Source of the DNA: Myxococcales bacterium
GTDB taxonomy: Bacteria; Myxococcota_A; UBA9042; JABWCM01
Assembly: GCA_013360285.1 (NCBI GenBank)
Contig: JABWCM010000016.1
Span: 1 to 43,447, forward strand
DNA: 43,447 nt
Direction of reading: 5' to 3'
Position 1 is the first letter of the stretch. The number at the start of each line of letters is the position of its first letter. A program made the position numbers and the translations under genes. Of this stretch, positions 10,299-30,375 are shown piece by piece. Below the pieces are notes generated by a model. That model saw only the letters and a list, made by a program, of their open reading frames with translations, was not told where the DNA came from and made no database searches.

Positions 10299-10358
10299 GG
10301 ATGCAAACCTGGTCAAAAATGACTTCTTTCGGGAGTCGAATACAGGTGCAGTTTTTGG

Positions 10359-13300
10359 TTACAGAAATTCCGTCTGAAAAATAGACCAGGACAAACGCCG
10401 GTAGATATTGAAGTTCAAGTTATTGTAACTGTTGATATTAAATTGTGTGTCGTCTTGACTTAAAGTGTGGGTGATGGCGACCCGAATCATGCCGGCGGGC
10501 CAATTGACGAGCCCCGACAAAACACCAAAATCGGGTAAATTGACACCGGGTTCGGAACCATTCACCACGATTTGCCAAAACGGTTTACCAAGGGAGTCGG
10601 CAAGAGATACAAACGTGTAATTGGGCACCAAATAAGGATGCAGCGTCCACTTCATCCATCCTCCAGGAAACGGGGTGCCCGGCGACGGGGTGACGATTTC
10701 GGGAAACGGCATAAATGGGCCGATCAGAAAATTGTATTTTCCAACGGCGAATAACGGATCAGCCGGGTTGGAGGTACCGACAAGGGCATGGATATCGACC
10801 GAGGTGGCGGAATCGGATTCGTTTTGCCATTCGGTTCCGTTCCAATGCAACAGGGTACCGGCGTCGCCGGCAACCCACATGTCCTGCGGGGTCCGACCCC
10901 AAATAGTACGAATTTGTTGGGTTGTTGGGATTTCAGTTGAAACCCAACCCGTCGCTGTTTTCTGAATCAGCGTGTTTTTCCCAGCAATCATGGCGGCATA
11001 GCCGGGTCCGTGGACCCAGACCGCGTGAAGAGGCGTGTTTTCGGCAACAAACGACGCAACCCACCCTGCATTGGTGTAGGACACCACTTTTCCATCCATT
11101 CCGGTGGCGACGATGTGGTTATCGCCGTCTCCGGATATCGCCACCAGGTTGTCGGTGTGCGCTAAGTCCAGTTGGGTGAGGTTGATGCCGTCATAGTGCA
11201 GAATTCCTACGTCTCCAACGATGTAAACATCATCGGAGGCACGCCCCCACACGTCGGTGAAGTTTCCGGAAACCGGAGACGGGAAAAGCGACCATGCAAT
11301 TCCATCAAAACGGAGGATGGTGCTGCTTTCTCCCACCGCCCAGACGTCGTTTTTGGCGCTACCCCAAATCGCCCGTAGATCGGTTTTGACGGGGGTTCCT
11401 TGGGGAAACCAACCGACGCCGTTCGAGTAGACGAGTCCGCCGGAAGGTCCGACGGCGTAGGCGGTGGTCGCGTCGGCTGCCCAGACGTCTGCCAAGTCGC
11501 GGGAAATACTGCCTTGAGGTGGTTGCCATTTCGGGGTTTTGTCGGTCAACGTCAAAATCGAATCCCCTTCGATGGATTCGATGTATTGCAGTAAGTTAAC
11601 AGAATAGGGGTTTGAAAACGGGTTGTTTGTGAAAATGGTCGTATAAAACGTATAGGTGGCTCCAAACAGGGGCCCGGTCAATGACGATGGGTATGGACCA
11701 AAAAGATAGGGCTCGGAAGTTGTCGACTGAGGGAGTTCGGGCATTTGAATGTATCCGTCTTCACCGTCAAGGCGCAGATTGATTCGAAAGCTGGGTACTT
11801 TGGTGCCAAGTGGGTGGATAGGCGGTTCCACAAGGCGTGCTCTTAGAGTGTAATTGAGTGGCACAGTTAACTCGACATCTTGTCCATCGAGAATCCCACC
11901 GGGGATCGGAAAAACGTGCCTGAGTACCCCCATCACAGTCGGAACAAAGTTTTGTTTGGCGTCGAGGAATCCGCCGTAACAGATGACGGCAACTTCGCCG
12001 TTTCGGCTTGGAATTTGGTAAATATCCTGGTCGTCCGCGTAGTTGGCTGGCCCGGGTAGCGCTTGAACCGCAAAAATGTTGGCTTTGCTAATAACACAAT
12101 ACGCCGCTTTCTGCGGAGGGGTGGGGTGGCATACCGAATCGGCGCCGGGCGCCCCACATACATAATCTTCGGGACAATCGTTGTTGTCGGCGCAGGCCAA
12201 GGTGCACCGTGGCTCCAGGACTCCGTCGGGTTGCAACAACGTGCCGCAAATCGAACCAGGAGCGGTACAATCGGCATCCGTGCTGCAGGAAACGCACAGC
12301 CCGGGGATTTGGCCGGCTCCGGCGACCGTGTCGCAATCGGTAGGGGGAACGATGACGTATTTGTCCATTCCGATTACTTTTCCGCGGACCGTTGCGGGTT
12401 CGGCCGAGCCGCCGCCGGGTGGTCCGGGAGGAAGGTCCGGATTGAGCAGAACTGTGACGTTTTCTGAATCAAAGTCGGACACGGTATAGGTACTGTAGCC
12501 GGTAGCCGATGCGCTTACAGATGCTGGGCCGGTTAATCCGGGACCGCTGAACGTGGTGAGGCCGTATTCATCGGTGGTATCGACCCATGCACCGGCGCCG
12601 GCGCCTAAAATGACCACGGCTGCTTCGATGGGCAGGGTGGTGGCGGCATCCAACACCGTGACATTGATGGCGCCGTCGATGGGTTCGCCCCAGGTGCCGC
12701 CTTTGGAGTTGGTTGGATTAAAGTAGGTGTACGCATTGGTAAGAGATGCCGCCAAACCATCGGAAACAACTACGATATCCACCGTAGAGACCGGTCCGCC
12801 CGGGCTTATGGCCGCCAGTTGAACCGCGGAAACAAATTCGACGGCCACTGCGGCTGTATCTCCGAACCACACTTGGGAATCGGGGGAGAACCCGGTGCCG
12901 TAAATTTCGACATAAGTACCGCCGGCCATCGAACCTTTCATTGGGTCAAGGGCAAACAAATTTAAGCCGCTTGGGCCGGTATAAACAAACGCGTCGGGTG
13001 CTGTAACAGAGGCAAAGTCGGTTGTAACGGTTACGTCGACGGGTCCTATCGTACCCGCCGGAGTTACGCCGCTAAGCACGGTAGGTGAAGTAACAACCAC
13101 GTTGGACGCCGGCAGAGCCCCGATGCGTACAAAGGTTGTACCGGAGTGGAAACCTTTTCCTTGTAAGATAAACGACGTTCCACCCTGCTGCGGTCCCGAG
13201 GTTGGGCTGATGGCGGAAATAGTGAGATCGGGAGTGTAGGTAAAGGTTTTCGGCAAGCTGGAGGTTTGTCCGGAGACGATAAGGTCCACGTTCACCACTT

Positions 13301-14558
13301 CGGGTGTTTTGCCCTCTGGGGTAGTCACAATCACCAGGTGTTCGGTTGGCAGCACCTGTTGTACAATAGCGGAAACATTTCCAAACAGAACCGCGGTGTT
13401 TTCCAAGGTGGTTTCCGCTGGTAAATGTGCGGTAAGATAAACAGTTGTGCCTCCGGAAAGCGGTCCGGTTTTCGGCCAGATGTTGACGGCTTGGAGGTCG
13501 GTTTGGGGCCCGAGATAAGTAAAAACACCTTCGGCCAGCAGCGAGCCGTCCGACGTTTCGATTTCTACGTCGGCGGGTCCGATGGGACCACCCGGGGTAA
13601 CGATTCGTAACGTTGTACCATTGCCGGGCTCGACAACAAGGCACTCTTTTCCTGCGATTCGAACGACAGTATCTTCCCACAGCGCCGTTCCGAAAATGTC
13701 GACGGGTTCACCGCCGGCAGCCGTGCCGCTCCAGGGCGATAACTTTTCCAACGTAGGAGGGGCCTGGTATCGAAAACCATGGGAGAGGTGTGCAAAGGCG
13801 GTGGGAGTCGATGCTTGGACATCGATGTAGCCAGGCAAACCTCCGGGCGTGATCGCTACAATTTGGGAACTGTTTGTGACCGACATCGAAATGGCAGGTT
13901 TTCCGCCGAACAACAAGACGGTTTGTGAATCGAAGCCGTTTCCCTCCACGATGACGGGGGTGCCGCCGATGGCTGGGCCGAAGTCCGGAGAAACTTTGGT
14001 GATCTTCACGTTGGTTTCGTAATAATATCCGTTTTTTACAACCGCGGAAAACCCGTCGCCGCGTTCTACGGTGATGTCGACAAATCCGGGGGGATGTGCG
14101 GGTGCAAGCACCAAAATTGTGGTTTCACCTTCGACATAAGGGAGTTGCCCCGCCATGTCGCCGAACCATACCTTACAATCCGTGGTAAACCCTTCCCCGA
14201 TGATCGTCACGATGTCTCCGCCAAGTTCCGTTCCGATCATGGGGGTGACGGAGAGGATCTGGATCGGCGAATCGCCGGAATCTGCTTCGTGGATATCCGT
14301 TGTGGAGTCTTGGTCCGGTATGCCGATGTCAGTCGAGGTATCCGTCGAAGTTCCAAAAGTGTCCGTTACGTCAACAGTGGTCTCGATGTCATTGCCGGTT
14401 GTGGTTGTGTCCGTGGCTATCGTGTCGGTATCCGGTGCCAAACTCGATCCATCGATGATATCCGCTGAGAGTTGAGGTGTGTTTGTTTCCGAACAAGCAC
14501 CAAGGCCCATCCATGCCAGGGCGGCGACCAGAATAAGCCACTTTTTAACAATCATCAT
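10359..14558 (-). CDS. Giant lipoprotein with six IPT/TIG domains and a propeller
   Basis: 1399 residues. The signal peptide ends in LGAC (Cys22), followed by a Thr/Asp-rich linker to ~95. Six consecutive IPT/TIG immunoglobulin-like domains (~98-611) each start with a V-x-P-x-x-G or I-x-P-x-x-G motif and contain a GGTxVxIxGxGF-like strand. Next comes a carboxypeptidase-regulatory-like beta domain (~620-710), then a Dickkopf-like Cys cluster (CVSCSTDADC, ~750). After a beta-rich stretch, residues ~1023-1270 hold repeats of the form DVWAVGESSTILRFDG and DMWAVGDAGTLLHWNG, a propeller-like array common in myxobacterial surface proteins. Likely an outer-membrane-anchored adhesin or glycan-binding protein. 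It appears to be the first gene of a minus-strand transcript with the next giant lipoprotein. Confidence 0.85.
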   Translation of the reverse strand: MMIVKKWLILVAALAWMGLGACSETNTPQLSADIIDGSSLAPDTDTIATDTTTTGNDIETTVDVTDTFGTSTDTSTDIGIPDQDSTTDIHEADSGDSPIQILSVTPMIGTELGGDIVTIIGEGFTTDCKVWFGDMAGQLPYVEGETTILVLAPAHPPGFVDITVERGDGFSAVVKNGYYYETNVKITKVSPDFGPAIGGTPVIVEGNGFDSQTVLLFGGKPAISMSVTNSSQIVAITPGGLPGYIDVQASTPTAFAHLSHGFRYQAPPTLEKLSPWSGTAAGGEPVDIFGTALWEDTVVRIAGKECLVVEPGNGTTLRIVTPGGPIGPADVEIETSDGSLLAEGVFTYLGPQTDLQAVNIWPKTGPLSGGTTVYLTAHLPAETTLENTAVLFGNVSAIVQQVLPTEHLVIVTTPEGKTPEVVNVDLIVSGQTSSLPKTFTYTPDLTISAISPTSGPQQGGTSFILQGKGFHSGTTFVRIGALPASNVVVTSPTVLSGVTPAGTIGPVDVTVTTDFASVTAPDAFVYTGPSGLNLFALDPMKGSMAGGTYVEIYGTGFSPDSQVWFGDTAAVAVEFVSAVQLAAISPGGPVSTVDIVVVSDGLAASLTNAYTYFNPTNSKGGTWGEPIDGAINVTVLDAATTLPIEAAVVILGAGAGAWVDTTDEYGLTTFSGPGLTGPASVSASATGYSTYTVSDFDSENVTVLLNPDLPPGPPGGGSAEPATVRGKVIGMDKYVIVPPTDCDTVAGAGQIPGLCVSCSTDADCTAPGSICGTLLQPDGVLEPRCTLACADNNDCPEDYVCGAPGADSVCHPTPPQKAAYCVISKANIFAVQALPGPANYADDQDIYQIPSRNGEVAVICYGGFLDAKQNFVPTVMGVLRHVFPIPGGILDGQDVELTVPLNYTLRARLVEPPIHPLGTKVPSFRINLRLDGEDGYIQMPELPQSTTSEPYLFGPYPSSLTGPLFGATYTFYTTIFTNNPFSNPYSVNLLQYIESIEGDSILTLTDKTPKWQPPQGSISRDLADVWAADATTAYAVGPSGGLVYSNGVGWFPQGTPVKTDLRAIWGSAKNDVWAVGESSTILRFDGIAWSLFPSPVSGNFTDVWGRASDDVYIVGDVGILHYDGINLTQLDLAHTDNLVAISGDGDNHIVATGMDGKVVSYTNAGWVASFVAENTPLHAVWVHGPGYAAMIAGKNTLIQKTATGWVSTEIPTTQQIRTIWGRTPQDMWVAGDAGTLLHWNGTEWQNESDSATSVDIHALVGTSNPADPLFAVGKYNFLIGPFMPFPEIVTPSPGTPFPGGWMKWTLHPYLVPNYTFVSLADSLGKPFWQIVVNGSEPGVNLPDFGVLSGLVNWPAGMIRVAITHTLSQDDTQFNINSYNNLNFNIYRRLSWSIFQTEFL

Positions 14559-18070: not shown

Positions 18071-19276
18071 ATGCGTACTTGGCTGATTTCGGCGGCGACA
18101 ATTCTTTTTTTGACGGCAACGTTTACGTTTGTCGGTGCTGGTTGTGGCGGCGACGATGACGAAAACGGTGGTATCGTTGTGCCGGACACCGGTACAGACG
18201 AAGACACCGGAGGTAGTTCTGACACCGGAAACGGCGGTGGTGATCTGGTCATAACGGATATCGACGAAGAAGACACGTCGACGACCGATACCGGTGTAGC
18301 GGAAGATATCCAAGATCCCCAGGATGTTGTTGATACCCAGTCGAATGACACTGCAATACCGGACGCCGAGTCGGACAGCGGTACCGATACCGTGGACGCT
18401 CAAGACGAAGATTCGGGCGGAAAAGATGAAGATACCCAGGACACCGAAGATGCTGTTGTCGTGGATTGTATTGAAACCTGTAGCGATACGTATGCGCCCT
18501 TGTGTTGTGATGGGAAAGGATTTGACAACGACTGTTTGGCCGGCTGTGCTGGTTTTGATGTAAGTGCGTTTCAAGACGGTACGTGTAAAAAAGGCAAATG
18601 CAACACTTGTCCGTGCGTAGATGAGCAAGATCAGTGTGGCGGCAAAGGGGTTTGTGGAAAAAACAACAAATCCTACACGCAGTGGTGTGATTTTCAGTGT
18701 GATCCGGAAATCAGCGACGTCGTGTTGGACAAAAAGAACTGCGGGTTGTGTAAGGCCAGCGACAACTGCAGCAAATGTCAGGATCCGTACTATCCGAAGT
18801 GTGGTTCGGACGGATTTACTTATGATTCGCCGTGTAAACTGGAACATTGCGCTCCCCAAACAACGACCCTTGCATGTGACGGCTTATGTCCTGCTAAGTT
18901 TGTTGATATTCCGGCTTGTGATGCCTGCGACGATACGTGTGAACCGGTTTGTGGTTATACGTTTGATGGTGACATTACGAGTTTCCGCAACGCGTGTTTT
19001 CTGGAATGTGCCGGTGGAACTGTGATTCACACCGGTGCATGTTGTGACAGCCCGAAAGACAAAGCTCCCGTGTGTGGTAAAGACCTCAAGACCTATCCCA
19101 ACTCGTCGTTTGCCACCTGTGCGAATACCACCATTTTTTACGAAGGTACGTGTGTTTGTGACTGTGACATGAACGTCACGGAACCGGTTTGTGGAATCGA
19201 CGGGATTACTTACCAGAATGAGTGCGCAGCCGCGTGTGCGAAAGTGGAAGTGCTCAGTCAGGGTGTGTGTAAGTAG
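18071..19276 (+). CDS. Kazal-type Cys-rich lipoprotein
   Basis: 401 residues. The ATG is preceded by GAGGT at good distance. The signal peptide ends in VGAGC (Cys25), then an about 100-residue Asp/Thr/Ser/Gly linker that is almost purely acidic. Residues ~134-401 hold about six Cys-rich units of Kazal/follistatin type. The clearest are PVCGIDGITYQNECAAAC near the C-terminus and PKCGSDGFTYDSPCKLEHC near 245, with the C-G-x-D-G-x-T-Y-x-x-x-C signature. Known Kazal domains bind and inhibit serine proteases, so a surface protease inhibitor or protein-binding role is plausible but not proven. R1 copy B lies about 110 bases upstream. Confidence 0.8.
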   Translation: MRTWLISAATILFLTATFTFVGAGCGGDDDENGGIVVPDTGTDEDTGGSSDTGNGGGDLVITDIDEEDTSTTDTGVAEDIQDPQDVVDTQSNDTAIPDAESDSGTDTVDAQDEDSGGKDEDTQDTEDAVVVDCIETCSDTYAPLCCDGKGFDNDCLAGCAGFDVSAFQDGTCKKGKCNTCPCVDEQDQCGGKGVCGKNNKSYTQWCDFQCDPEISDVVLDKKNCGLCKASDNCSKCQDPYYPKCGSDGFTYDSPCKLEHCAPQTTTLACDGLCPAKFVDIPACDACDDTCEPVCGYTFDGDITSFRNACFLECAGGTVIHTGACCDSPKDKAPVCGKDLKTYPNSSFATCANTTIFYEGTCVCDCDMNVTEPVCGIDGITYQNECAAACAKVEVLSQGVCK

Positions 19277-19489: not shown

Positions 19490-19558
19490 CTTTTCTGACG
19501 ATGCTGTGCGCGACTGTGATGGGCGGCGAAGTCGGGTAAACCAAGGAGGAAGTTGTTT

Positions 19559-21106
19559 ATGTCGAAACATGGAGTGAGCGTGTCGATGCTCTTGGTGGCT
19601 GGCCTTTTGATTGGAGGATGTAATGAGACTCCCGTCGGTGGCGTTGTGGATACGCTGACGATTACGGTTGCTGACATAACAAATACTACTGGTAAGATAA
19701 AGCTGGATATTGTTTGGGTTATCGACAACTCGGTGTCGATGTGTCAGGAACAAAACAGCTTGGCGAACAACGTGGACACGTTTGTCGAGAAATTTGCCGC
19801 GTTGAATCTCGATTTACGGATGGCGGTCATTACAACCGACGTATTGACGGAAGCCGAACAAGGGAACTTTCATTGTAAGTTACCAGGGCAATTTCCTCCG
19901 AACTGCATTGAGCGAGAGGTTCACAAATGCCTCAAGGATGAAGATTGTTCAGGTAAGTTTGGACCCCAATGGGTATGTGACGAGCCGACAAACGGGGCGA
20001 TCAATCTGACCAACCTGAACGGATCGATCAATTCAAAATGCCGTTACCTGTGCGACGGCAATGACCAATGTTCCGATTTGTACGGGGATCCCGATTATAA
20101 GTGTACAACTCCGGGCAATGATGCCGCCGAACGGGGATGTATTCTTCCGCCGGATATTGCGGGTTGCCCTACGGATTTACCTTGTGTTCTGACAACGGAA
20201 GACGGAAACATCGATTTGTTTCGATGCGTTGCCATTGTGGGTGCAGAGCAAGCCCCAAATCCTCAATTTGAACAAGGGTTAAACGCGGCGTTGTGGGCGT
20301 TGGATACCAATCCGTCTCCGGGAGTTCCGGATCGCTCTCTGCAAGCGAAGAATTTCATTCGAAAAGATGCCTATCAGGTTATCATTTTTATCACGGATGA
20401 AGATGACTGTTCGCTTGCCACCGGTGTATCGTTAAAAAAAGACGACTGGAACCGGTGTGTGTGCTTAAAAACAACCGACGACGGTGGCCCGTTGGAGCCG
20501 GTAAGTAACTTTGTCAACAAACTTAAGTCGATCAACGCCGATTCGTCCAAAGTGCTGGTTGCAGCAATCGTTGGAGATGTTTCGGTCGGCAGCCAAGATT
20601 CTTTGGGTTGCCCAGATGACGACCAGTTGGATCAATGTTTGAAGGACAAACGGGAATTGTTTCAAAAATCGAAATGTGGCCCGTCGGCTTACGCCAAAAA
20701 CTCCTACGTTTGTGAAAGTGTCGCCGGGCAAGCGGAATGGGGCAGTCGTTACCTTGAGTTGGTGAACCGATTTGGGGTCAACGGGGTTGCGGCAAACATT
20801 TGTAATGACGCTGGTTTTGGGCCGGCGCTTGATCTGATCTCCGAAAAGATATTAACCCGTGTTGTGCGGGTTTGTTTACCACGACAAGTGAAACCTGGAA
20901 CCGAGCTGTATGTTTCAAAGGTGCTTCCCAACGGGGAAACAACCCAACTCGTGCAAAATGCAGAAGACGGCTTCACCGTTGAAACCGCTACGGATTGTCC
21001 GGCGTTGGGTCCGGATATTGGCGGAAAAGCAGTATTTCTCAAAAAAGTATTGGCTGCCGGTGAACAGTTGGAAGTTCGTTACGAGGCGCCGATTGTAGCC
21101 GAGTAA
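19559..21106 (+). CDS. vWA-domain lipoprotein
   Basis: 515 residues from the ATG at 19559, which has AAGGAGGA upstream; a TTG six bases earlier is less likely. The signal peptide ends in LIGGC (Cys21). A von Willebrand A domain starts at about 48 with the metal-ion-dependent adhesion site D-N-S-V-S (56-60) in VWVIDNSVSM. An inserted Cys-rich block (~110-215) interrupts the fold, and QVIIFITDEDDCS (~276) provides a later strand of the domain. Additional Cys residues at ~300-400 suggest several disulfides. The C-terminal ~85 residues look beta-rich. Myxobacterial-type secreted vWA lipoproteins are common and of mostly unknown ligand. It has its own promoter. Confidence 0.8.
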   Translation: MSKHGVSVSMLLVAGLLIGGCNETPVGGVVDTLTITVADITNTTGKIKLDIVWVIDNSVSMCQEQNSLANNVDTFVEKFAALNLDLRMAVITTDVLTEAEQGNFHCKLPGQFPPNCIEREVHKCLKDEDCSGKFGPQWVCDEPTNGAINLTNLNGSINSKCRYLCDGNDQCSDLYGDPDYKCTTPGNDAAERGCILPPDIAGCPTDLPCVLTTEDGNIDLFRCVAIVGAEQAPNPQFEQGLNAALWALDTNPSPGVPDRSLQAKNFIRKDAYQVIIFITDEDDCSLATGVSLKKDDWNRCVCLKTTDDGGPLEPVSNFVNKLKSINADSSKVLVAAIVGDVSVGSQDSLGCPDDDQLDQCLKDKRELFQKSKCGPSAYAKNSYVCESVAGQAEWGSRYLELVNRFGVNGVAANICNDAGFGPALDLISEKILTRVVRVCLPRQVKPGTELYVSKVLPNGETTQLVQNAEDGFTVETATDCPALGPDIGGKAVFLKKVLAAGEQLEVRYEAPIVAE

Positions 21107-21359: not shown

Positions 21360-21387
21360 TTGACATCAACTGTCCTCCAGGTATCAT
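21360..21387 (+). promoter_or_regulatory. Promoter of the baseplate module
   Basis: A perfect TTGACA at 21360-21365, a 16-base spacer and TATCAT at 21382-21387. The expected transcript start (about 21394) falls after the GTG at 21389, so the first gene must start at the ATG at 21443. The preceding 21107-21359 shows nothing I can identify. Confidence 0.6.
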
Positions 21388-21442
21388 CGTGCGGCTCCAA
21401 AGGGTTTTTCCTTTGATTGTTTCCGATTGGCCTACGAAACCG

Positions 21443-21631
21443 ATGAATGATCAAGACTACGAATACTTCGATCTTCTCCAAGACATTCTGGAAGAAGTGA
21501 TCAACGGCCGTACCGATCACCATAAGTGCCCGTTTTGTCGGAAAGGTGAACTGGAGGTGACGGTGGATGAGGCGTATGTCCATATGGAGTGCCCGCACTG
21601 TGGTAAAACATTTGATGGACAATATGGCTAA
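21443..21631 (+). CDS. Small zinc-ribbon protein
   Basis: 62 residues from the ATG at 21443; a GTG at 21389 would lie upstream of the predicted transcript start. The N-terminal ~25 residues are acidic and helical (NDQDYEYFDLLQDILEE). The rest is a treble-clef or ribbon-like CPFC (~30) and CPHC (~53) pair with an intervening beta-hairpin. It starts the baseplate transcript, 13 bases before the gp25-like gene. Possible roles are assembly factor or regulator. The absence of a clear Shine-Dalgarno leaves some doubt. Confidence 0.6.
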   Translation: MNDQDYEYFDLLQDILEEVINGRTDHHKCPFCRKGELEVTVDEAYVHMECPHCGKTFDGQYG

Positions 21632-21644
21632 CCGGGGAGCGTAG

Positions 21645-22046
21645 ATGAAAAAAAACTTTCTTGGGCGAGGTTGGGCGTTCCCTGTCGGTGTCGACGCGAC
21701 CGGCGTCATTGCTCTGAGCGAATTTGAGCGCAATATTGAGCAATCTTTGCTGCTTATTCTCGGTACGGCTCCAGGAGAGCGGGTCATGCGACCGGATTTT
21801 GGCTGCCGTATTCACGAATATGTGTTTCATCCGAACAACGCCAACACCGCGGCGTTGGTGGCGTATCATGCCCGAGAAGCGCTTGTTAAATGGGAGCCGC
21901 GTGTAGACGAGGTGATTGTGCAGGCGTATCCCGATTCTCAAAATGACAATGTACTGTTGGTGGACATCAAATATCGGGTTATCCGCACCAACGACCTAAA
22001 GAATATGGTCTACCCATTTTACCTGCGCCGGGAGCAAGATCTATGA
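21645..22046 (+). CDS. gpW/gp25-family baseplate wedge protein
   Basis: 133 residues, preceded by GGGAGCG. It has the lysozyme-like gp25 fold of contractile-tail baseplates: ILGTAPGERVMRPDFGCRIH (residues ~45-64), then a helix and strands ending VDIKYRVIRTNDLKN (~108-122). In T4, R-type pyocins, T6SS (TssE) and extracellular contractile injection systems, this protein is a wedge subunit that helps start sheath assembly. Here it overlaps the next gene by four bases (ATGA), indicating coupled translation. Length fits the family. Confidence 0.85.
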   Translation: MKKNFLGRGWAFPVGVDATGVIALSEFERNIEQSLLLILGTAPGERVMRPDFGCRIHEYVFHPNNANTAALVAYHAREALVKWEPRVDEVIVQAYPDSQNDNVLLVDIKYRVIRTNDLKNMVYPFYLRREQDL

Positions 22047-25000
22047 TTCCCAGTCCAAACCTGGATGACCGTACCTGGCAGGACATCGTCGAGGAAGCGA
22101 AACGGCTCATACCCCAATACTGTCCGGAGTGGACAAACTTCAATACGGCCGACCCGGGTATTACGCTCATAGAGCTTTTTGCCTGGATGACCGAGATGAC
22201 TTTGTACCGGCTAAACAAGGTGCCGGACAAAAATTATATCGCATTTCTTGAACTGATGGGGGTGCATCTACAACCTCCGCAGCCCGCGCGAACTTTGTTG
22301 CAATTTAAGTTAAGCCAGGCTGCGGATAACTTTGTGGTGCCGGCGGGAAGTGCGTTCTCCACTGTGGCAAGTGGCGGTGGTCGCCCCATATCCTTCGAGA
22401 CCGACGAAGATGTTACCGTGGTCACATCGGTGATAACGCGTTGTGTTTCGCAAGTCCATGACCCCCACACCCAGAAGACGCTTGTGGCGGACCATACCGA
22501 AGATTTGGTAGTTGGGGTCACGAGACCCGTCGAGCCGTTTTCCGGTGTGCGCGCTGTTGATCGGTACCTTTACCTTGGGGATTCAAGACTTCAAAACTTC
22601 GGCGAAAACGCGATTCTGACGATTCGGATCGAGACACCGGAGCAGTGGGAGAGGCCATTCAAAAAGCTGTTGGAGTGGGAGTATTGGAATGGCGAGATGT
22701 GGCGGGAATTGACCGAATCCGTTATTGAGGTCGACAAAAAAACGATCGCCTTTAACGGCCCTCCGGCGATCAGCACTGCCATAGTCGGTGATGTAGAAAA
22801 TTACTGGATTCGTGCGCGTCTGGTTGAGGTTCCGACATCATCCAACGAAACCATGGTGGACACGATTCGTGCGAAGCTGGAAGTGCTGGGTGAGGGTATT
22901 GTTCCGGACAAAGCACTGGTCAACGTGGAGTCGGATCTCTTTTTAACCCGCGACCTCGACAAAAATTTTCATCCGTTTGACCGCGAACCCAAGATCGACA
23001 CGACGTTCTATGTCGCCTGCGAAAGCATTTTGTCACAGCAAGATGCTTTGGTGCGGCTTGAAATTCAACTTTCCGATCCCTCGGTTGCAAATCCGCCGAA
23101 TCCTGCTGCGGATTTATTGCTCCGTTGGGAATACTGGAGCGGCAAGAAGTGGACTTTGATTGGTCGAACGACTGCGGCTGGGGTTCCGGAAAACGAACCA
23201 GGGCGGTTTGGACTGAAGGATGATACTTACGCGTTTACGAAATCCGGCGTTCTGGAATTTGTTCGGCCGCGAAATATGGAGGCGTGTAAGGTATACGGCG
23301 ATCAAAGTTACTGGCTGAGATGCCGCATTGAAGCGGGAAACTATGGTGTTCCCGGTTCTTACGAAAATGTGGATGACCGTTGGGTTTGGAAAGACGAACA
23401 CCCGCTTAGACCTCCGATGTTGAAGTCGATCACTTTCAAGTCTTCGGAGGAACCACGGGCGTTTGAAAAAGTGTTGACATTTAATGACTGGACGTATTCC
23501 GACATGTCAGCGGTGGCGGCGCAGGACTCCAAACCATTTCAGGCTTTTGCACCAATCCCGGAAGAAAGTCCGGCATTTTACCTTGGCTTAAGTGATCCGT
23601 TCCCGCCCCAAACTTGCCAGATTTATTTTCAGCTTGAGGACGAAGGACGTGGGGCGTCGTTTCCTTCCATCGATGAACGGGAACGGGCGTTGGCGGGTCG
23701 GGATGGCGAGGGAGCCGAGCAGAGTGTTGTTTGGGAGTATTGGGCCGGAAAACACTGGCAAGCGTTGTTGCCAAGGGACTACACAGGGCATCTGACACAT
23801 AGTGGGTTTTTGCGGTTTGTGGGGCCGAAAGATTTTCGTAAAACCAAAAGATTTGGCGACGAGCTGTTTTGGATTCGTGCCCGGCTGGAGATGGGCGGAT
23901 ACGATGTCCCACCGCGGATTCAAAGTGTGCTTTTGAACTGTGTTTCGGCTTCCAATATTACGACCTTTCGCGACACCATTCTTGGAAGTAGCCAAGGTAC
24001 ACCCAACCAAGTATTTCGGTTTAACCGAGGCCCGGTGCTGAGAGGGCAACAGATCGTGATTCGGGAAAGGGACGAACCCGGTCCTACCGAAATGAAGGCG
24101 ATTTTGGCCGAATCCGGTGAGGATTCGGTGAAGTTAGACCCGGAGCACCCCGGCGAATATTTGGTACGGTGGAAAGAAGTAGATTCGTTTTTTGAAAGTA
24201 CGTCATCAAGTCGTCACTATGTCAAAGACATCGTGACCGGCGAGCTTCGATTTGGCGATGGTGTACATGGAATGATTCCACCCAAAGCCGACAGGAATAT
24301 TGTGTCGACATTTTATCAGGTGGGTGGCGGTGAAGATGGAAATGTTGCCGCGGGGATGATCACGGTTTCGCGGCAAACCTACGCGTATATCGAGGCGGTA
24401 ACCAATCCTTTTCCGGCTACCGGCGGATGTGATCTCGAGACTGTTGACGAGGTTAAGTTACGTGGACCTCATATGCTCAAGAGTCGAAATCGTGCCGTCA
24501 CCGCTGAAGATTTTGAGTGGTTGTCCATAGAGGCGTCCAATAGCGTTGCGCGGGTTCGTGCATTGTCGAGCGTGGAGAGGGAGGGGGAGGTAACGGTTGT
24601 TGTGGTTCCCAAGGTGCCCCGTTTGCCGTCGGGAGACATTGATTTACGTGAAAAACCCATTCCTTCTACGGAATTGTTGCGGCGAGTCCGACGCTATCTG
24701 GATGACAGAAGATTGTTGACGACTGTCGTTCGTGTGAAAAAGCCGCGATACGTAGAAATGTCGGTTGAAGTGCGTATTGTGCGTCATGCACACGGGTCCA
24801 GCGACAGAATTAAGCGAGAAATCGACAAAAATCTTCGACGGTTCCTGAATCCGCTTGTTGGGGGGCGCGACGGGCGCGGGTGGCCATTCGGTCGAAGTGT
24901 TTTCAAAGTCGACCTGTACCACGTGATTGAGGGGGTTGCTGGAATCGATTTTGTGGATTCTGTTCGAATTATTGACGCAGAGCGAAAACAGGAATGTGAT

Positions 25001-25081
25001 CAACTGCGATTGAGGTCCGACGAGTTGGTCTATTTGGTCAATGTGGATGTCGCTGAGATAGCGCACGAAAAGATTATCTAA
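22043..25081 (+). CDS. Baseplate J/gp6-like assembly protein of contractile injection systems
   Basis: 1012 residues, longer than P2 gpJ (about 300) but in line with baseplate J proteins of eCIS such as the Afp11/Pvc11 class. The N-terminus (DRTWQDIVEEAKRLIPQYCP, then FNTADPGITLIELFAWMTE, ~35-52) is the signature seen in that class. The middle (200-640) carries repeated beta-rich inserts that each contain WEYWxGxxW and a following FWIRARLE or YWLRCRIE element. The C-terminal ~300 residues (LRGPHMLKSRNRAVTAEDFE, ~812) match the conserved gpJ end. It starts within the stop codon of the gp25 gene. Function: wedge ring connecting hub and sheath. Targeting or effector functions are not evident. 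Confidence 0.85.
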   Translation: MIPSPNLDDRTWQDIVEEAKRLIPQYCPEWTNFNTADPGITLIELFAWMTEMTLYRLNKVPDKNYIAFLELMGVHLQPPQPARTLLQFKLSQAADNFVVPAGSAFSTVASGGGRPISFETDEDVTVVTSVITRCVSQVHDPHTQKTLVADHTEDLVVGVTRPVEPFSGVRAVDRYLYLGDSRLQNFGENAILTIRIETPEQWERPFKKLLEWEYWNGEMWRELTESVIEVDKKTIAFNGPPAISTAIVGDVENYWIRARLVEVPTSSNETMVDTIRAKLEVLGEGIVPDKALVNVESDLFLTRDLDKNFHPFDREPKIDTTFYVACESILSQQDALVRLEIQLSDPSVANPPNPAADLLLRWEYWSGKKWTLIGRTTAAGVPENEPGRFGLKDDTYAFTKSGVLEFVRPRNMEACKVYGDQSYWLRCRIEAGNYGVPGSYENVDDRWVWKDEHPLRPPMLKSITFKSSEEPRAFEKVLTFNDWTYSDMSAVAAQDSKPFQAFAPIPEESPAFYLGLSDPFPPQTCQIYFQLEDEGRGASFPSIDERERALAGRDGEGAEQSVVWEYWAGKHWQALLPRDYTGHLTHSGFLRFVGPKDFRKTKRFGDELFWIRARLEMGGYDVPPRIQSVLLNCVSASNITTFRDTILGSSQGTPNQVFRFNRGPVLRGQQIVIRERDEPGPTEMKAILAESGEDSVKLDPEHPGEYLVRWKEVDSFFESTSSSRHYVKDIVTGELRFGDGVHGMIPPKADRNIVSTFYQVGGGEDGNVAAGMITVSRQTYAYIEAVTNPFPATGGCDLETVDEVKLRGPHMLKSRNRAVTAEDFEWLSIEASNSVARVRALSSVEREGEVTVVVVPKVPRLPSGDIDLREKPIPSTELLRRVRRYLDDRRLLTTVVRVKKPRYVEMSVEVRIVRHAHGSSDRIKREIDKNLRRFLNPLVGGRDGRGWPFGRSVFKVDLYHVIEGVAGIDFVDSVRIIDAERKQECDQLRLRSDELVYLVNVDVAEIAHEKII

Positions 25082-25178
25082 GTGCTGTGATTCCTTAAAT
25101 TAAATTTCACGATGCGTGTGCTGCCGCGCAACGCTGCTGGGCCGTCGGACCGCGAAAGCGAATGTATTCTGGGAGTTC

Positions 25179-26069
25179 ATGTCAAAAGCCCTGACTAAAC
25201 TTAGAAAGTTGGTGATTCCCGATCTTGCGGGACTCAAGGTTGCCGACGCTCACGTCGTGCTTCGCAATTTGGGGTTTGTCGACGCAACGGAGTACTTTGT
25301 CGACGCTTACGAGGCGGAAGGCACGATTGTCCAGACCGATCCTCCACGTGGTCAGATGGTATCCGGCGATACGATTGTCAAACTGTTCGTGTCGCGTGCA
25401 AGCTACGTCAGGTATCTTCCTACAATCTATCAGGCTCCATCCAGTCCCGTCGACGTTGATTTCCTAAGACGATTTCTCAGGATCTTCCAACACGTCAACC
25501 ATGGGGTTCGCGAACGTATCAACACGATGGCGTCGTTGTTTCGTCCGTTGGAAACCGAACCCGAATTTCTGCCTTGGTTAGCTGGGTGGCTTGCGCTTAC
25601 TCTCGATCCGGATTGGCCGTTGGATAAGAAACGGTTGTTGATACGGAGTGCTGCCCGATTGTACGGTATTCGAGGCACATCCAGAGCGCTTGTCGGGATG
25701 CTGGAAATTTTCACGGGGGTTCGGCCAAAATTATTGGAGAATGAGTGGCCTTACAGAGGATTCAGGGTGGGTGTCGCCTCGACGATTGGTATTGATACTA
25801 TCGTGTTGCCTCCGATGAACCTGAATCATTGTTTTGTGGTCAAACTGCCGTTAAGTTACGACGCGATCGGCGATGAAATGTTGATTAAGATTCACACGAT
25901 TATACAAAACGAGAAACCATCGCATACGACCTATTTTCTGCAGTTCCAAGACGAAGAAGGCGTAACGTTACAGCGTTCGTTCATGCAGATCGGTATACAA
26001 TCGCGAATTGGTGACGATGAGGGGGAGGCGGAGCCTACCGCTGACGGAGGAGAATTGAATGGCACCTGA
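25179..26069 (+). CDS. PASTA-domain fused tail protein I
   Basis: 296 residues from the ATG at 25179, with GGGAG just upstream; an in-frame upstream start at 25116 would add 21 poorly coding residues. Residues 11-73 match a PASTA domain: VIPDLAGLKVADAHVVLRNL, then EGTIVQTDPPRGQMVSGDTI. From ~77 the sequence follows the phage tail protein I family: RYLPTIYQ, FLRRFLRIFQ, PEFLPWLAGWLALTLDPDWP and KKRLLIRSAARLYGIRGTSR. Tail protein I contacts the baseplate periphery or fibre region. PASTA domains otherwise occur in peptidoglycan-sensing kinases and penicillin-binding proteins. The last 11 bases overlap the next gene. Confidence 0.8.
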   Translation: MSKALTKLRKLVIPDLAGLKVADAHVVLRNLGFVDATEYFVDAYEAEGTIVQTDPPRGQMVSGDTIVKLFVSRASYVRYLPTIYQAPSSPVDVDFLRRFLRIFQHVNHGVRERINTMASLFRPLETEPEFLPWLAGWLALTLDPDWPLDKKRLLIRSAARLYGIRGTSRALVGMLEIFTGVRPKLLENEWPYRGFRVGVASTIGIDTIVLPPMNLNHCFVVKLPLSYDAIGDEMLIKIHTIIQNEKPSHTTYFLQFQDEEGVTLQRSFMQIGIQSRIGDDEGEAEPTADGGELNGT

Positions 26070-27597
26070 GAATGGTTTTTTTAAGCGAATCAACTTCTTC
26101 CGCGGGTTTTTGACCACGGAACACGATTGGAATGATGCCGAAGCTTATCATTTCGAAAAGCAGAAGCTTCACAACAAGATGTTTCACGGTCCCGGTGTAG
26201 TGGGTCACTACGGAGGTGCCTTACGTGTAACCGCTAGGGGCCGCAACGAGTTGGCGGCAGAAATCGCTACGGGTTACGCAATCGATGGTCGTGGGCACGA
26301 TATCTGGGTACCTGAACCGGAAATCAAGTTGGTGATCCCAAAGGACTTTAAGCTTCCGCAGACCGTTTATTTGGTCCTTCGGTATATTGAAGAACCAACG
26401 GATTACGTCGCTTATAAAGAGAATCCGGAATATAAGGGTCATAAAAGGATAGAAGAAAAATACAAGATCGATTTTACCAACATCCCCCCGGATATTGAGC
26501 GAGAGATTGAACTTTGTCGCATTGCGTTGACCGACGACCCGAGGAGGATCTCGGATGCCCGTGATCCCATGAATCCGGGTCCCAACGAAATTGACTTACG
26601 GTTTGTTCCGTTTGCTGGTGTTGTGGGTCCGTTTCTGGATCCGATGGTTTTGTTTCGAATTCGTCGTATGGTCGATTTGTGTCGGGGAACGTACGCATTT
26701 TTGTTTCACGATTTGGACATCCGACGTGCCGGCGACGTTCTGTACTGTTTTTATACCCTAGACATGCTGATTCTCATTCGGCAGGTTGATATTCGAAGCT
26801 TCATTGAAATGAATGCTTCCATTATGGAACTTCAGCAGGAGTTGATCGCCGAATTGGATGAACGTCATCCACAGCACGCTAGCACGAGAGAATTTCTTAA
26901 TTTTAAAAACCCGATTCGTTACTTAGAACAGCTTTATGGTGAAGATAAGCCGGAAAGAGAACTGGTCGAACATATTATTGGTTACCAAACCAAAGCATGT
27001 GAAGCTTTGGAAGGGCTCCACGCACCTCGTATCGAACGTCATAAGCCCGGTCAATTGGAGGCGGCGTCGCCGGAAGCCCTTTGGGAACAGGTGAAAATCC
27101 GAAGCCAACCGTTCGAAAAAGAGTTGGTACTCGATACCAATAAATTTCTACTGGCCGACGAAGTGGACGTGTTGCACTCTGAATCCGAAAAAGGACATGG
27201 CTTCGAGATACGTGAATACAAAGATATGTATCGATCACGTCAGGCGTTCAAGTATCCTGATACCGAGGAAGGAACGGTTGTTCGTGATGAAGGCATTGCG
27301 TTTGAAGGTGGATTTGCCGAGTTCACAATTCACAATGTGAAAGTAAAAAGGCAACTCATTTTGGTATTTCGTATCGACTACACCCATGGAGAATGGCAAG
27401 CGGGCATGCTTTTGAATGGTAAAAAAGCCGCCGACTGGGTGGTTACGGGTCGAGATCGAAAATTCAGGTGGAGAAATTGGCCGTTTATTATCCCCGGCGA
27501 CTCTGTCGAGGAGGACACGGTGCATGTTCGAATCGAATTTAAGAAAGCTGAACGAGATGTGAACATGTTCCATATTTGGGCATATCAGCCCGCATAG
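26059..27597 (+). CDS. Tail-cluster protein of unknown function, 512 aa
   Basis: The ATG at 26059 has GGAGGAG upstream and overlaps the preceding gene. The N-terminus follows a pattern seen in proteins of contractile-tail-like clusters: RINFFRGFLTTEHDWNDAE, then HNKMFHGPGVVGHYGGALRV (~35-55), with a following GYAIDGRGHDI strand. The middle contains acidic and aromatic-rich helices (~215-330). The C-terminal ~150 residues look like a beta-sandwich, possibly carbohydrate-binding. No catalytic motif is recognised. Its position directly after tail protein I suggests a fibre-attachment or baseplate-accessory role. I cannot name a family with certainty. Confidence 0.75.
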   Translation: MAPENGFFKRINFFRGFLTTEHDWNDAEAYHFEKQKLHNKMFHGPGVVGHYGGALRVTARGRNELAAEIATGYAIDGRGHDIWVPEPEIKLVIPKDFKLPQTVYLVLRYIEEPTDYVAYKENPEYKGHKRIEEKYKIDFTNIPPDIEREIELCRIALTDDPRRISDARDPMNPGPNEIDLRFVPFAGVVGPFLDPMVLFRIRRMVDLCRGTYAFLFHDLDIRRAGDVLYCFYTLDMLILIRQVDIRSFIEMNASIMELQQELIAELDERHPQHASTREFLNFKNPIRYLEQLYGEDKPERELVEHIIGYQTKACEALEGLHAPRIERHKPGQLEAASPEALWEQVKIRSQPFEKELVLDTNKFLLADEVDVLHSESEKGHGFEIREYKDMYRSRQAFKYPDTEEGTVVRDEGIAFEGGFAEFTIHNVKVKRQLILVFRIDYTHGEWQAGMLLNGKKAADWVVTGRDRKFRWRNWPFIIPGDSVEEDTVHVRIEFKKAERDVNMFHIWAYQPA

Positions 27598-27706
27598 GGT
27601 GTTCTGCGGCTGCGTTCGGCGCAAAAATTTTGTGGTGACGTAAAATTTGTCGTAGAAAACGATAATGTGACCCACATTCCGCCTAAACCCGCGATGGACC
27701 AGTCCG

Positions 27707-28444
27707 ATGATTATCGATTTTTTTAAGATGTTGGTGAGGGGGCGGGTTAGCAGTGTCCAGGCCCGTGTTCGTGGTAAGGTGTCGGGTGTCGAATCACGTG
27801 CAAAGTCGGTAGCATCTTCGAAATTCAACAATGCCATCGACAAACCGATGAACAAGGTAGGAGAAGCGGTCAAGAATAAAGAAAAGGCGCTCAAGGGTGC
27901 AATAAAGGGGCAAAAGCAGCCACCCGCAGCGCAGAATCAACAAGCATCCGGAGGGCAGTCACAAAAGGGAACGCCAGTTCAGGGGCGACCCAGCGGCAAT
28001 CAGAAATCAGCGGGCGGAAAAATGGGAATCTTCCGAAGAAACAAAGAAGTACAGCAGGTTGGCGGCCAAGCGCCGGCCGATGCGTTCAGCGACAATAGCA
28101 AGACGACCGTCGTGGACGTTTCGCAATTGCAGGACGATCGATCTCAGGATTGTGTAGGTTGGCTGGTTCCCCTCAGCGGAGCACAAAGGGGCCGGGATTT
28201 CAGGCTCATTACCGGGAAGAACGTGATCGGTACCGCGGCTGACAGTCACATCGTGTTGTATGACCCTTATATGTCGTCCAAACATGCTGCTATTCGTCAT
28301 GAAAACGGTGTGTTTACCCTGATTGACCTGGATTCCACCAATGGCACCTTCCTCAATGATCGGCGAATTTCCAAAGAAGAGCTGATCGACAACGATACTG
28401 TGCGGATCGGCCGAACAGAATTGAAATTCAAGTCACTGTACTAG
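27707..28444 (+). CDS. FHA-domain protein with basic N-terminus
   Basis: 245 residues. The N-terminal ~65 residues are basic and amphipathic (MIIDFFKMLVRGRVSSVQAR), possibly a membrane-associated helix. Residues ~66-125 are a Gln/Gly/Pro-rich linker. A KTTVVD motif (132-137) precedes the FHA domain (~152-243), whose phosphopeptide-binding residues are present: Gly175, Ser190-Ser191-Lys192-His193 (SSKH) and Thr211-Asn212-Gly213 in STNGTFLNDR. FHA domains bind phosphothreonine. The T-T-x-V-D sequence could itself be a phosphorylation site, as in GarA-type switches. The gene ends exactly at R1 copy C: the TAG stop is within CTAGGTG. It probably links kinase signalling to the baseplate module. 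Confidence 0.85.
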   Translation: MIIDFFKMLVRGRVSSVQARVRGKVSGVESRAKSVASSKFNNAIDKPMNKVGEAVKNKEKALKGAIKGQKQPPAAQNQQASGGQSQKGTPVQGRPSGNQKSAGGKMGIFRRNKEVQQVGGQAPADAFSDNSKTTVVDVSQLQDDRSQDCVGWLVPLSGAQRGRDFRLITGKNVIGTAADSHIVLYDPYMSSKHAAIRHENGVFTLIDLDSTNGTFLNDRRISKEELIDNDTVRIGRTELKFKSLY

Positions 28445-28606
28445 GTGTGTGGTGTTTTTTAGGGGAATTTTTGGCTAGCCGAATTTGAGCCGAATCGTCC
28501 GAAAAAATCCTGAGGAATATCGGGAATATGCCGCAGGGAATTTTGCGGGCGAGGCGGCCAAAGGCGGCCAGGACACAAATTTCATCTAAAAACACCACAC
28601 ACCTAG
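28441..28606 (+). repeat. R1 palindromic element, copy C
   Basis: 166 bases. Ends are CTAGGTGTGTGGTG on both sides (read inwards), differing from copy B at the same positions on both ends. Left end overlaps the stop codon of the FHA gene (TAG at 28442-28444). Core hairpin is present with changed bases. From 28607 to 28839 there is a further noncoding stretch; GAAATCCGGGTTAGT at about 28639 recurs near 32281 after copy E, so this flank may belong to a larger repeat. Confidence 0.85.
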
Positions 28607-28839
28607 TCGCAGTTTGGCGATCATCGCCGAAAGCGGGTGAGAAATCCGGGTTAGTGTTCGTTACCGAAATGGGCTTGAACGTGCCAATTTTGCGCCGGAT
28701 TGGACAGATGCGAAACCTAAGGCACGATGCCTAGGCCGCAAGTCCCGCATTGATCGGTTACCGATTTCCGCTGACGTTGTCCACCTCCTGATTTTTGAAC
28801 AACGCTGGCGGAGCGAACCGCCTTCCAGATCATAAGTTA

Positions 28840-30375
28840 ATGAAACGCATGCTAAACATACGAATCCCTTTCCCCATCGTTCTCGCCGTTGCCGTTTTTG
28901 GGTTTTGTGTTGCCGGTGTCTACCCGTCCTACGGGCAACAAACCATTCGGATCGATCAAATCGATGCGGCAAAGTTCAAATCGGATAACTTAATACGGTT
29001 TTTTGTTGACCTTCGCGAACGAGATGGGCAGCCGGTAAAGGAGATTGACACCAAAAGCCTGGCTGTCCTTATCGACGAAATTCCCATTCCCGGGTCCATG
29101 CGAGTAACACCGTTTTACGAAACCGGCGAAAAAATTTCGGCGGCGATCATTTTGGCGTCCCATTTTGACTGGCATGTGGAGATCGAGGGTGGTTTTACCC
29201 CATTTGAGATGGAACTCGAGGGTATGGCGAAGTTTGTGCAAGAACTGCGACCAATCGATCGTGTTTCTTTGTGGTGCTATAACGAAAGGGGACTCAAGCC
29301 CGTACTTGCGTTCACACAAGCCGGTCAAAAAACAGCCGACGATTTTCGCAAAGCGGCGAGCGATTCTTGTAAGCAGGTGGTTCCTGATACGATTGAAGAG
29401 GAAGGAAAGGCTCCGGAGTTACAGGCAACAACGAAAGTTGTACCACAGTTGTACACCGAATTGCTCAAAGCGTCTCGCGAGCGGTTACGTGATGAATTGG
29501 AGAAAGAGTCGCTTGCTCGGCACCGCTACGTCATCCTGATGTCTGACTGCAATGACCAGAATTTGAAGATGCCTCAGTCTGAGCAGAAGATTCAAACCTT
29601 GGTCGACGAGATAGCAGCAGAAATAAGCGAACTGGGGAAATTTTACTCCATCGCGTTCACCACGATGGAAACAGGTGGAATTCCATATTGTGCACAGTTG
29701 TCGCAAAAAACAAATGGCGTCCATCTGCAGTTACCCGACGTGCCTAAGTTACAAGACGGGGTCGCCGAGTGGGCAAAGATGGCCGCCTCGATAAACCGAC
29801 AGTTGGTGATCGAATTCCAACCGGAAGCGCTGGAGGGAGGGCGATCTGTTAAGTTCCAAATGTCCGCGGAGGTACAGGGGACAAAGATAAGTACAGTTGC
29901 CGAGCAGATGACGCGGCTTGAGGAGCGATCGCGGGATTGGAAACGGATTTTGATCTGGATCGGGTCGGTGCTGTTGGGGTTGCTGGTGCTGTTTGGTTTG
30001 TACAAACTCGTCAAGGCTTATATTAACAAGCCGAAAGCGCCCGATCCTGTATATATTGAGGTTCAGGGCGAGCCAGTTGGTGCAATGAAAGGAAAGTTGT
30101 CCGTGACGTCGGGGCCCGCTGTAGGTGAGGTTTATTATATTACCGAAGCCGTCACCACCCTGGGGAGCGGCGAGGGCAACACGATCGTCATTCCAGATAC
30201 GTCCGTGTCCAGGCGGCATGCCGGAATCAAGGTCGAGGAGATGCGTTTTGAGCTTGCGGATTTTGGCGCTCGAAATGGTGTGTATGTCAATGGTCGTAAG
30301 ATCAACAAGTTATTTCTGAAGGACGGTGACGAAATTAGAATTGGCAATACGGAAATGACTTTTTCTCTAAAATAG
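28840..30375 (+). CDS. vWA-like / single-TM / FHA membrane protein
   Basis: 511 residues from the ATG at 28840. The signal peptide (MKRMLNIRIPFPIVLAVAVF...SYGQ) is followed by a vWA-like domain (~45-290) in which no D-x-S-x-S metal site can be seen: the strand reads AAIILASHFDWHVEI. A second strand, RYVILMSDCND, fits the fold. A Trp/Lys-flanked transmembrane helix lies at ~370-392 (WIGSVLLGLLVLFGLYKLVKAYI), and an FHA domain at ~415-511 has intact GSGEGN, SVSRRHA (455-461) and RNGVYVNG motifs. Predicted topology: periplasmic vWA, cytosolic FHA. Such a protein could transmit a periplasmic state to a phosphopeptide-based cytosolic switch. It follows the baseplate genes and R1 copy C. Confidence 0.85.
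   Translation: MKRMLNIRIPFPIVLAVAVFGFCVAGVYPSYGQQTIRIDQIDAAKFKSDNLIRFFVDLRERDGQPVKEIDTKSLAVLIDEIPIPGSMRVTPFYETGEKISAAIILASHFDWHVEIEGGFTPFEMELEGMAKFVQELRPIDRVSLWCYNERGLKPVLAFTQAGQKTADDFRKAASDSCKQVVPDTIEEEGKAPELQATTKVVPQLYTELLKASRERLRDELEKESLARHRYVILMSDCNDQNLKMPQSEQKIQTLVDEIAAEISELGKFYSIAFTTMETGGIPYCAQLSQKTNGVHLQLPDVPKLQDGVAEWAKMAASINRQLVIEFQPEALEGGRSVKFQMSAEVQGTKISTVAEQMTRLEERSRDWKRILIWIGSVLLGLLVLFGLYKLVKAYINKPKAPDPVYIEVQGEPVGAMKGKLSVTSGPAVGEVYYITEAVTTLGSGEGNTIVIPDTSVSRRHAGIKVEEMRFELADFGARNGVYVNGRKINKLFLKDGDEIRIGNTEMTFSLK

What the first reader, a model, noticed from the sequence alone, without database searches (positions are those of the whole stretch)
21360..30375. Baseplate module without sheath or tube, linked to FHA and vWA signalling proteins
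gp25, baseplate J, tail protein I and a further tail-type protein form one transcript-like block after a strong promoter, followed by two FHA proteins, one of them a membrane protein with a periplasmic vWA-like domain. FHA proteins control T6SS assembly through Ser/Thr phosphorylation; here the equivalent wiring is found with an eCIS-like baseplate. Sheath, tube, spike, tape and AAA+ genes are missing from the window. This is the best candidate for an undescribed system: a minimal or dispersed contractile machine under phospho-control.
Basis: partly seen in the sequence, partly recalled or inferred. Interest (0 to 1): 0.75.

Follow-up and report, generated by a model that had tools for sequence, protein, structure and literature searches.

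The report
Injection-machine baseplate with membrane FHA partner
The genes build the base of a phage-tail-like injection machine whose sheath and tube genes lie elsewhere in the same genome, and in its relatives the base genes are usually followed by a pair of FHA signalling proteins, one of them in the inner membrane, which may dock or trigger the machine there.

Summary
The genes are real: zinc-ribbon, gp25, baseplate J, PASTA-fused tail protein I, a 512-aa Cis13-like protein (P5), FHA1, and FHA2 (signal peptide, vWA, TM, FHA). "No sheath or tube" holds only for the window. The genome (a Myxococcota MAG) carries the cap, two sheaths, two tubes, a tape-sized ORF, the LysM adaptor and the hub on contig C126, without baseplate genes, and an FHA-AAA-DUF1257 cluster on C186. 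In relatives these parts are contiguous: LysM-hub-Zn-gp25-J-I-P5-FHA1-FHA2. C126's sheath is 80-88% identical in 21 of 22 tested P5 genomes. The FHA link is not accidental: an FHA gene follows P5 in 49/70 loci; in one lineage FHA2 sits in the sheath operon instead; in others FHA1-FHA2 is a free pair. In one seven-locus lineage a Ser/Thr kinase ends the cluster. This is a dispersed, complete contractile injection system, nearest to the Streptomyces CIS among solved structures, with an FHA/vWA membrane module not found in the open-access papers searched. Best mechanism (inferred): P5 and the baseplate dock on the inner membrane through FHA2. Canonical phosphothreonine control is weakened, because the FHA phosphate-contacting arginine is mostly absent.

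The parts
21360..21387 (+). sigma-70-like promoter match TTGACA-16-TATCAT (candidate only)
   Evidence: 11 of 12 consensus, but promoter-like matches in the region are fewer than in shuffles
21443..21631 (+). small zinc-ribbon protein (CxxC...CxxC), conserved just upstream of gp25
   Evidence: family found upstream of gp25 in most relatives
21645..22046 (+). gp25/Cis9 baseplate wedge protein
   Evidence: PF04965 3e-26; 9gtp_V Streptomyces CIS gp25 1e-32, second only to 2ia7
22043..25081 (+). large baseplate J / Cis11 protein (1012 aa)
   Evidence: PF04865, TIGR02243; best PDB match 9gtp_1K, Streptomyces CIS, 3e-89
25179..26069 (+). tail protein I / Cis12-like wedge protein with N-terminal PASTA domain
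   Evidence: PF09684 and PF03793; PASTA in 17 of 21 aligned homologues; CIS12_fam 6.5e-23, below its cut-off
26059..27597 (+). P5: Cis13-like protein (beta domain, helical region, beta domain); fold resembles TssK and phage receptor-binding proteins
   Evidence: NCBIfam CIS13_fam 1e-11 over res. 8-154, below its cut-off; AlphaFold model pLDDT 82.5, pTM 0.48; Foldseek top hit TssK 7.5e-7, low TM-scores
27707..28444 (+). FHA1: cytoplasmic FHA protein with a conserved Thr (T133) before the FHA domain
   Evidence: PF00498 6e-19; alignment A4
28840..30375 (+). FHA2: signal peptide, periplasmic vWA-like domain, TM helix, cytoplasmic FHA domain

Best explanation
The window holds the baseplate half of a complete contractile injection system (CIS) that in this genome is spread over three loci: C126 (cap, sheaths, tubes, tape-sized protein, LysM adaptor, hub), the window (baseplate, FHA1, FHA2) and probably C186 (FHA protein, AAA ATPase, DUF1257). 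Shown by gene content, orthology and gene order: the parts, their contiguity in relatives, and the conserved FHA1-FHA2 association. Inferred: the particle assembles in the cytoplasm; its baseplate, through the peripheral Cis13-like protein P5 and/or the PASTA-tagged wedge, binds the inner-membrane protein FHA2 directly or through FHA1. FHA2's periplasmic vWA domain would sense or bind an envelope ligand, and the contact licenses firing, as proposed for CisA in Streptomyces and for membrane-anchored CIS in Anabaena and haloarchaea. Phosphorylation may tune this in lineages with a linked kinase.
For: C126 has cap, 2 sheaths, 2 tubes, CIS_tube/LysM and hub but no baseplate genes; in relatives the same LysM-hub pair runs straight into Zn-gp25-J-I-P5 (28 of 43 loci with >=9 kb upstream). 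Sheath1 of C126 is 80-88% identical in 21 of 22 P5 genomes, versus 39-49% to the genome's other CIS sheaths. Other Baseplate_J genes belong to other systems. FHA follows P5 in 49/70 loci against about 0.3% by chance; FHA2 lies within 4 kb of P5 in 30 of 37 genomes, and 37 of 39 strong-FHA2 genomes have P5. In G104 FHA2 is instead directly upstream of sheath2-tube2-tape-LysM-hub (L250). C186 encodes FHA(658 aa)-AAA-DUF1257, 57% identical in the AAA to the gene ending the same cluster in Polyangia-like relatives. J and sheath1 match Streptomyces CIS best in PDB; there the membrane protein CisA/Sco4242, encoded just downstream of baseplate genes, is needed for firing (PMC12237407, PMC10066040). 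P5's N-terminus matches the Cis13 family, whose Anabaena member anchors the CIS in a membrane (PMC8894136).
Against: No physical interaction shown. FHA2's domain make-up differs from CisA's. P5 has no TM helix and its fold also resembles phage receptor-binding proteins, so it could be an ordinary tail fibre. 21 of 70 loci have no FHA gene within 1.5 kb of P5, although FHA1-FHA2 pairs were found elsewhere in five P5 genomes examined. Two genomes have strong FHA2 without P5. Nearly all data are from draft MAGs; the three-locus assignment rests on one binned assembly plus relatives.
Confidence: 0.55

Rival explanations
1. An ordinary released eCIS: P5 is a tail fibre that binds prey or host cells, and FHA1/FHA2 regulate its production, loading or release from the envelope rather than docking the baseplate.
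For: P5 model resembles phage receptor-binding and tail-fibre proteins; Cis13 means tail fibre in AFP/PVC-type systems (PMC12210884); Myxococcota eCIS clusters have been interpreted as predation weapons (PMC11937823).
Against: FHA2 is an inner-membrane protein by prediction; its gene sits directly after the baseplate genes or within the sheath operon; closest solved CIS (Streptomyces) acts inside the cell.
Confidence: 0.3
2. A T6SS-like phospho-switch: a Ser/Thr kinase phosphorylates FHA1 (for example the conserved Thr before its FHA domain) and pThr binding by the FHA domains starts assembly or firing.
For: Kinase in the same downstream position in 7 of 7 loci of one lineage; T133 invariant in the 19-sequence FHA1 alignment and a [KR]T motif in 38 of 49 FHA1 proteins; SxxH and N-G motif residues kept.
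Against: The GR arginine is R in only 3 of 51 FHA1 and 17 of 86 FHA2 hits (regex count); no kinase in the window or adjacent in most lineages.
Confidence: 0.25
3. The FHA genes are accidental neighbours of a CIS baseplate.
For: About 30% of loci lack FHA next to P5; FHA genes are numerous in Myxococcota.
Against: 49/70 adjacency against about 0.3% expected; FHA2 also next to the sheath operon where baseplate and sheath are split; co-occurrence Fisher p about 1e-28, not corrected for relatedness.
Confidence: 0.05
4. A minimal machine without sheath or tube.
For: None of these genes is in the window.
Against: A highly conserved sheath-tube-hub cluster lies on C126, and 21 of 22 tested P5 genomes have its sheath.
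Confidence: 0.02

Closest known systems
Cytoplasmic CIS of Streptomyces coelicolor (CISSc, subtype IId) with membrane protein CisA
   Same: J and sheath1 match it best among solved structures; LysM/hub/gp25/J/I set; a membrane protein encoded just downstream of the baseplate genes (PMC10066040)
   Different: CisA has a disordered cytoplasmic N-terminus, a TM and a periplasmic sugar-binding-like domain; here periplasmic vWA, TM and cytoplasmic FHA plus a second FHA protein. FHA, PASTA and kinase are not mentioned in the two CISSc papers searched. PASTA-fused wedge and large P5 here
Thylakoid-anchored CIS of Anabaena (tCIS) and haloarchaeal T6SS-like CIS
   Same: Cis13-type protein at the baseplate; membrane attachment through baseplate/fibre parts or an extra membrane protein (PMC8894136, PMC11566945)
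   Different: P5 has no TM helix; anchor candidate is an FHA/vWA protein not described there
T6SS with TagH/Fha1 and PpkA
   Same: FHA protein and (in one lineage) Ser/Thr kinase linked to a contractile machine; PpkA likewise joins a periplasmic vWA to a cytoplasmic signalling domain (own knowledge); P5 fold resembles TssK
   Different: No TssK family hit in this genome; sheath/tube/hub are CIS-type; profile comparison P5-TssK not significant
Myxococcota eCIS (PLTS-like) clusters of seamount MAGs
   Same: CIS clusters in uncultured Myxococcota, with a highly expressed tube gene (PMC11937823)
   Different: FHA is not mentioned in the main text; whether they are the same lineage as this system was not tested

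Membership tests
Contractile injection system (eCIS-type core) | Cap, sheath, tube, CIS_tube/LysM adaptor, hub/spike, gp25, J, I | tested here: met
   C126 plus window together carry all of them; contiguous in relatives
Contractile injection system (eCIS-type core) | AAA+ ATPase (Cis15) in the cluster | tested here: inconclusive
   No AAA found in window or C126; C186 AAA is 57% identical to the cluster AAA of some relatives, but its closest NCBIfam models are CDC48/FtsH, below cut-off
Released eCIS | Particles released and bound to target by tail fibre | not testable with these tools
   P5 fold is compatible with fibre or connector
Streptomyces cytoplasmic CIS (IId) | CisA membrane protein | not tested
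   No CisA sequence search was run; FHA2 occupies the equivalent gene position
Thylakoid-anchored CIS | Cis13 with transmembrane helix | tested here: not met
   P5 has no TM segment by hydropathy
Type VI secretion system (i-iii) | TssK | tested here: not met
   PF05936 has no hit in G000; P5-TssK profile comparison not significant
Type VI secretion system (i-iii) | TssJLM membrane complex | not tested
   not searched
Phosphothreonine-binding FHA domain | GR arginine plus SxxH and N-G residues | tested here: not met
   S, H and N kept, but Arg replaced by T (FHA1) or S (FHA2) in the window proteins and mostly so in the family; binding itself not testable here
Prophage tail | Relatives in viral contigs | tested here: not met
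   No P5 relative in IMG/VR contigs; pattern-based scan

The most novel reading that the evidence does not exclude
A membrane-docked class of CIS in Myxococcota in which an inner-membrane vWA-TM-FHA protein and a second FHA protein hold and gate the baseplate, with a PASTA-tagged wedge reading peptidoglycan: T6SS-style envelope control built independently onto an eCIS-type machine.
Probability: 0.3. Interest if true: 0.75.

Novelty: new variant of a known kind. Interest (0 to 1): 0.52.

Why it matters
How free-floating contractile machines are brought to, and fired at, the right membrane is open: CisA, Cis13 and a haloarchaeal anchor are the few known answers. A conserved FHA/vWA pair tied to a widespread CIS of environmental Myxococcota would be another, and would link CIS firing to Ser/Thr signalling and envelope sensing. 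It also warns that scans for contiguous clusters will miss CIS whose sheath, baseplate and control genes sit in separate loci, as in this genome and several related families.

Tried and rejected
Prophage remnant: rejected; no viral relatives, no capsid family among the window proteins scanned, broad conservation in the phylum. PADLOC defence system: no hits. P5 by sequence: no Pfam or PHROG family at the thresholds used, no PDB sequence relative; NCBIfam CIS13 gave the lead. P5 = TssK homologue: Foldseek top hit, but TM-scores 0.2-0.4, unrelated folds at similar E-values, and hhalign profile tests not significant, although a local match fell in register at the N-terminus (GFLTTEHDWNDAEAYH / GLFITQHHFQQLDAYH); kept only as a structural resemblance. 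TssF at the J N-terminus: 3 of 19 members, below Pfam's cut-off; Afp11 shares that region, so not T6SS-specific. Chen 2019 eCIS survey not held in the library.
Full report
What is there. The block 21443-30375 (+) encodes, in order, a small zinc-ribbon protein, gp25, a 1012-aa baseplate J, tail protein I with an N-terminal PASTA domain, a 512-aa protein (P5), FHA1 and FHA2. J and P5 overlap the gene before them and I starts about 100 bp after J; FHA1 follows P5 by 110 bp and FHA2 follows FHA1 by about 400 bp. FHA2 has a signal peptide, a vWA-like fold, one TM helix and a C-terminal FHA fold, supported by a model of mean pLDDT 79.9 and Foldseek matches to vWA and FHA structures. The genes on either side that were used as queries (vWA-like lipoprotein 19553-21106, Kazal protein, PhoPQ-related protein, TRAP solute-binding protein) had no match in the 20 related neighbourhoods first fetched, so the module's edges are 21443 and 30375.

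Where the rest of the machine is. The genome holds sheath and tube genes on C126, C271 and C13. C126 reads cap (Pvc16_N), sheath1, tube1, sheath2, tube2, a 1809-aa tape-sized ORF, CIS_tube/LysM adaptor and GPD-type hub, and then no baseplate genes. The other Baseplate_J genes are on C73 (with its own adaptor, spike and I), C13 (with its own sheath and tubes) and C83 (prophage-like by gene content). So C126 lacks a baseplate and the window lacks a sheath. In relatives the two halves are one cluster: LysM-hub-Zn-gp25-J-I-P5, with cap-sheath-tube-sheath-tube upstream where that DNA was fetched. Of 43 loci with at least 9 kb upstream of P5, 28 have the hub gene there. Sheath1 of C126 is 80-88% identical in 21 of 22 P5-bearing genomes and only 39-49% identical to the own genome's other CIS sheaths. 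Split arrangements like this one recur: in family f3 the sheath cluster, the baseplate and FHA1-FHA2 sit in three places.

The FHA link. Among 70 named relatives with at least 1.5 kb after P5, 49 have an FHA gene within 1.5 kb on the same strand, usually within 150 bp; chance is about 0.3% per locus at 30 detectable FHA genes per 7 Mb. A search with the vWA part of FHA2 alone finds strong matches in 39 of 379 phylum genomes; 37 of them have P5, and in 30 of these 37 the two genes are within 4 kb. These counts are not corrected for relatedness. In genome G104, whose baseplate is elsewhere, FHA2 lies directly upstream of the sheath2-tube2-tape-LysM-hub operon (L250), and in G040, G016, G070, G191 and G031 FHA1-FHA2 is a free-standing pair. 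In 15 of the 80 named loci the cluster continues with further FHA genes and an AAA ATPase; this genome has the matching FHA(658 aa)-AAA-DUF1257 piece on C186 (the DUF1257 name for the last gene is my own reading of its sequence, not a database hit). In seven loci of one lineage the cluster ends in a Ser/Thr kinase after FHA1-FHA2 and two further genes (kinases recognised by catalytic-loop motif).

Mechanism. J and sheath1 match the Streptomyces coelicolor CIS best in the PDB, and gp25 matches it second best. That machine is cytoplasmic and needs the membrane protein CisA, encoded just downstream of its baseplate genes, to contract; CisA is predicted to contact Cis11, the J homologue (PMC12237407, PMC10066040). 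P5's first 150 residues match NCBI's CIS13 family, below its curated cut-off; Anabaena Cis13 binds the baseplate and anchors the machine in a membrane (PMC8894136), and Cis12/Cis13 plus a separate membrane protein are proposed anchors in haloarchaea (PMC11566945). I therefore infer that FHA2 is the membrane anchor or trigger and that P5 and/or the PASTA-bearing wedge is its baseplate-side partner. This step is inference only.

Limits on phospho-control. FHA1 keeps the SxxH and N-G residues, but the GR arginine is T in the window protein and non-R in most relatives; FHA2 has mostly S. The conserved Thr before the FHA1 domain resembles, from my own knowledge, the phospho-site of GarA/OdhI-type proteins, and NCBIfam OdhI/FhaB models do match both proteins below their cut-offs. 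Canonical pThr reading is thus possible but not favoured for these two; the FHA protein on C186 does carry a GR...SRKH motif.

Structure of P5. The model (mean pLDDT 82.5, pTM 0.48) has a beta domain, a helical region and a second beta domain. TssK is the first PDB match (E 7.5e-7) and five TssK chains are in the top 31, but TM-scores are low and unrelated proteins (GH115 enzymes, Cry toxins) score nearly as well. Viral matches include receptor-binding and minor tail proteins. Profile comparison with 22-24 Myxococcota TssK sequences was not significant. P5 may be a connector or a fibre.

Novelty. Ten open-access CIS papers searched for the term FHA (among them an eCIS survey, a metagenome landscape, the fibre catalogue, and the Streptomyces, Anabaena, Roseiflexus and haloarchaeal studies) do not mention it in the main text. 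Only one held paper joins the terms contractile injection system, FHA domain and baseplate, and it is a T6SS review. Myxococcota eCIS clusters have been reported in seamount MAGs (PMC11937823). I class this as a new variant of a known kind.

Noticed in passing
G000 contigs C271/C73 and C13: At least two further CIS in the same genome: C13 with its own sheath, two tubes and J, and a probable second one broken between C271 (sheaths, tubes) and C73 (adaptor, spike, J, I). C13's sheath is nearest to AlgoCIS and tCIS, unlike C126's.
   Followed up: partly
L178:7422-11415 (G000 C186): FHA(658 aa)-AAA-DUF1257-like cluster; the same order ends the CIS cluster in several Polyangia-like relatives (for example L069, L165). 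Role of the last gene is unexplained.
   Followed up: partly
window 25179-25400: PASTA domain fused to a baseplate wedge protein, in 17 of 21 aligned homologues; PASTA is usually found in penicillin-binding proteins and Ser/Thr kinases.
   Followed up: partly
window 21443-21631: Conserved small zinc-ribbon protein upstream of gp25, with no family assignment above cut-off.
   Followed up: partly
window 19553-21106 and 18071-19276: Lipoprotein with a vWA/MIDAS-like motif and a protein with three Kazal inhibitor domains just upstream; not conserved with the module.
   Followed up: partly
window 7404-14558: Large proteins with Dictyostelium-type CTDC repeats (970 aa) and six TIG domains (1399 aa).
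   Followed up: no
L274-L280 (G124, G108, G165, G229, G162, G058, G214): TssK family matches that cover only the first 316-386 of 429 model positions, in some genomes that also carry P5; possible divergent T6SS-like systems.
   Followed up: no
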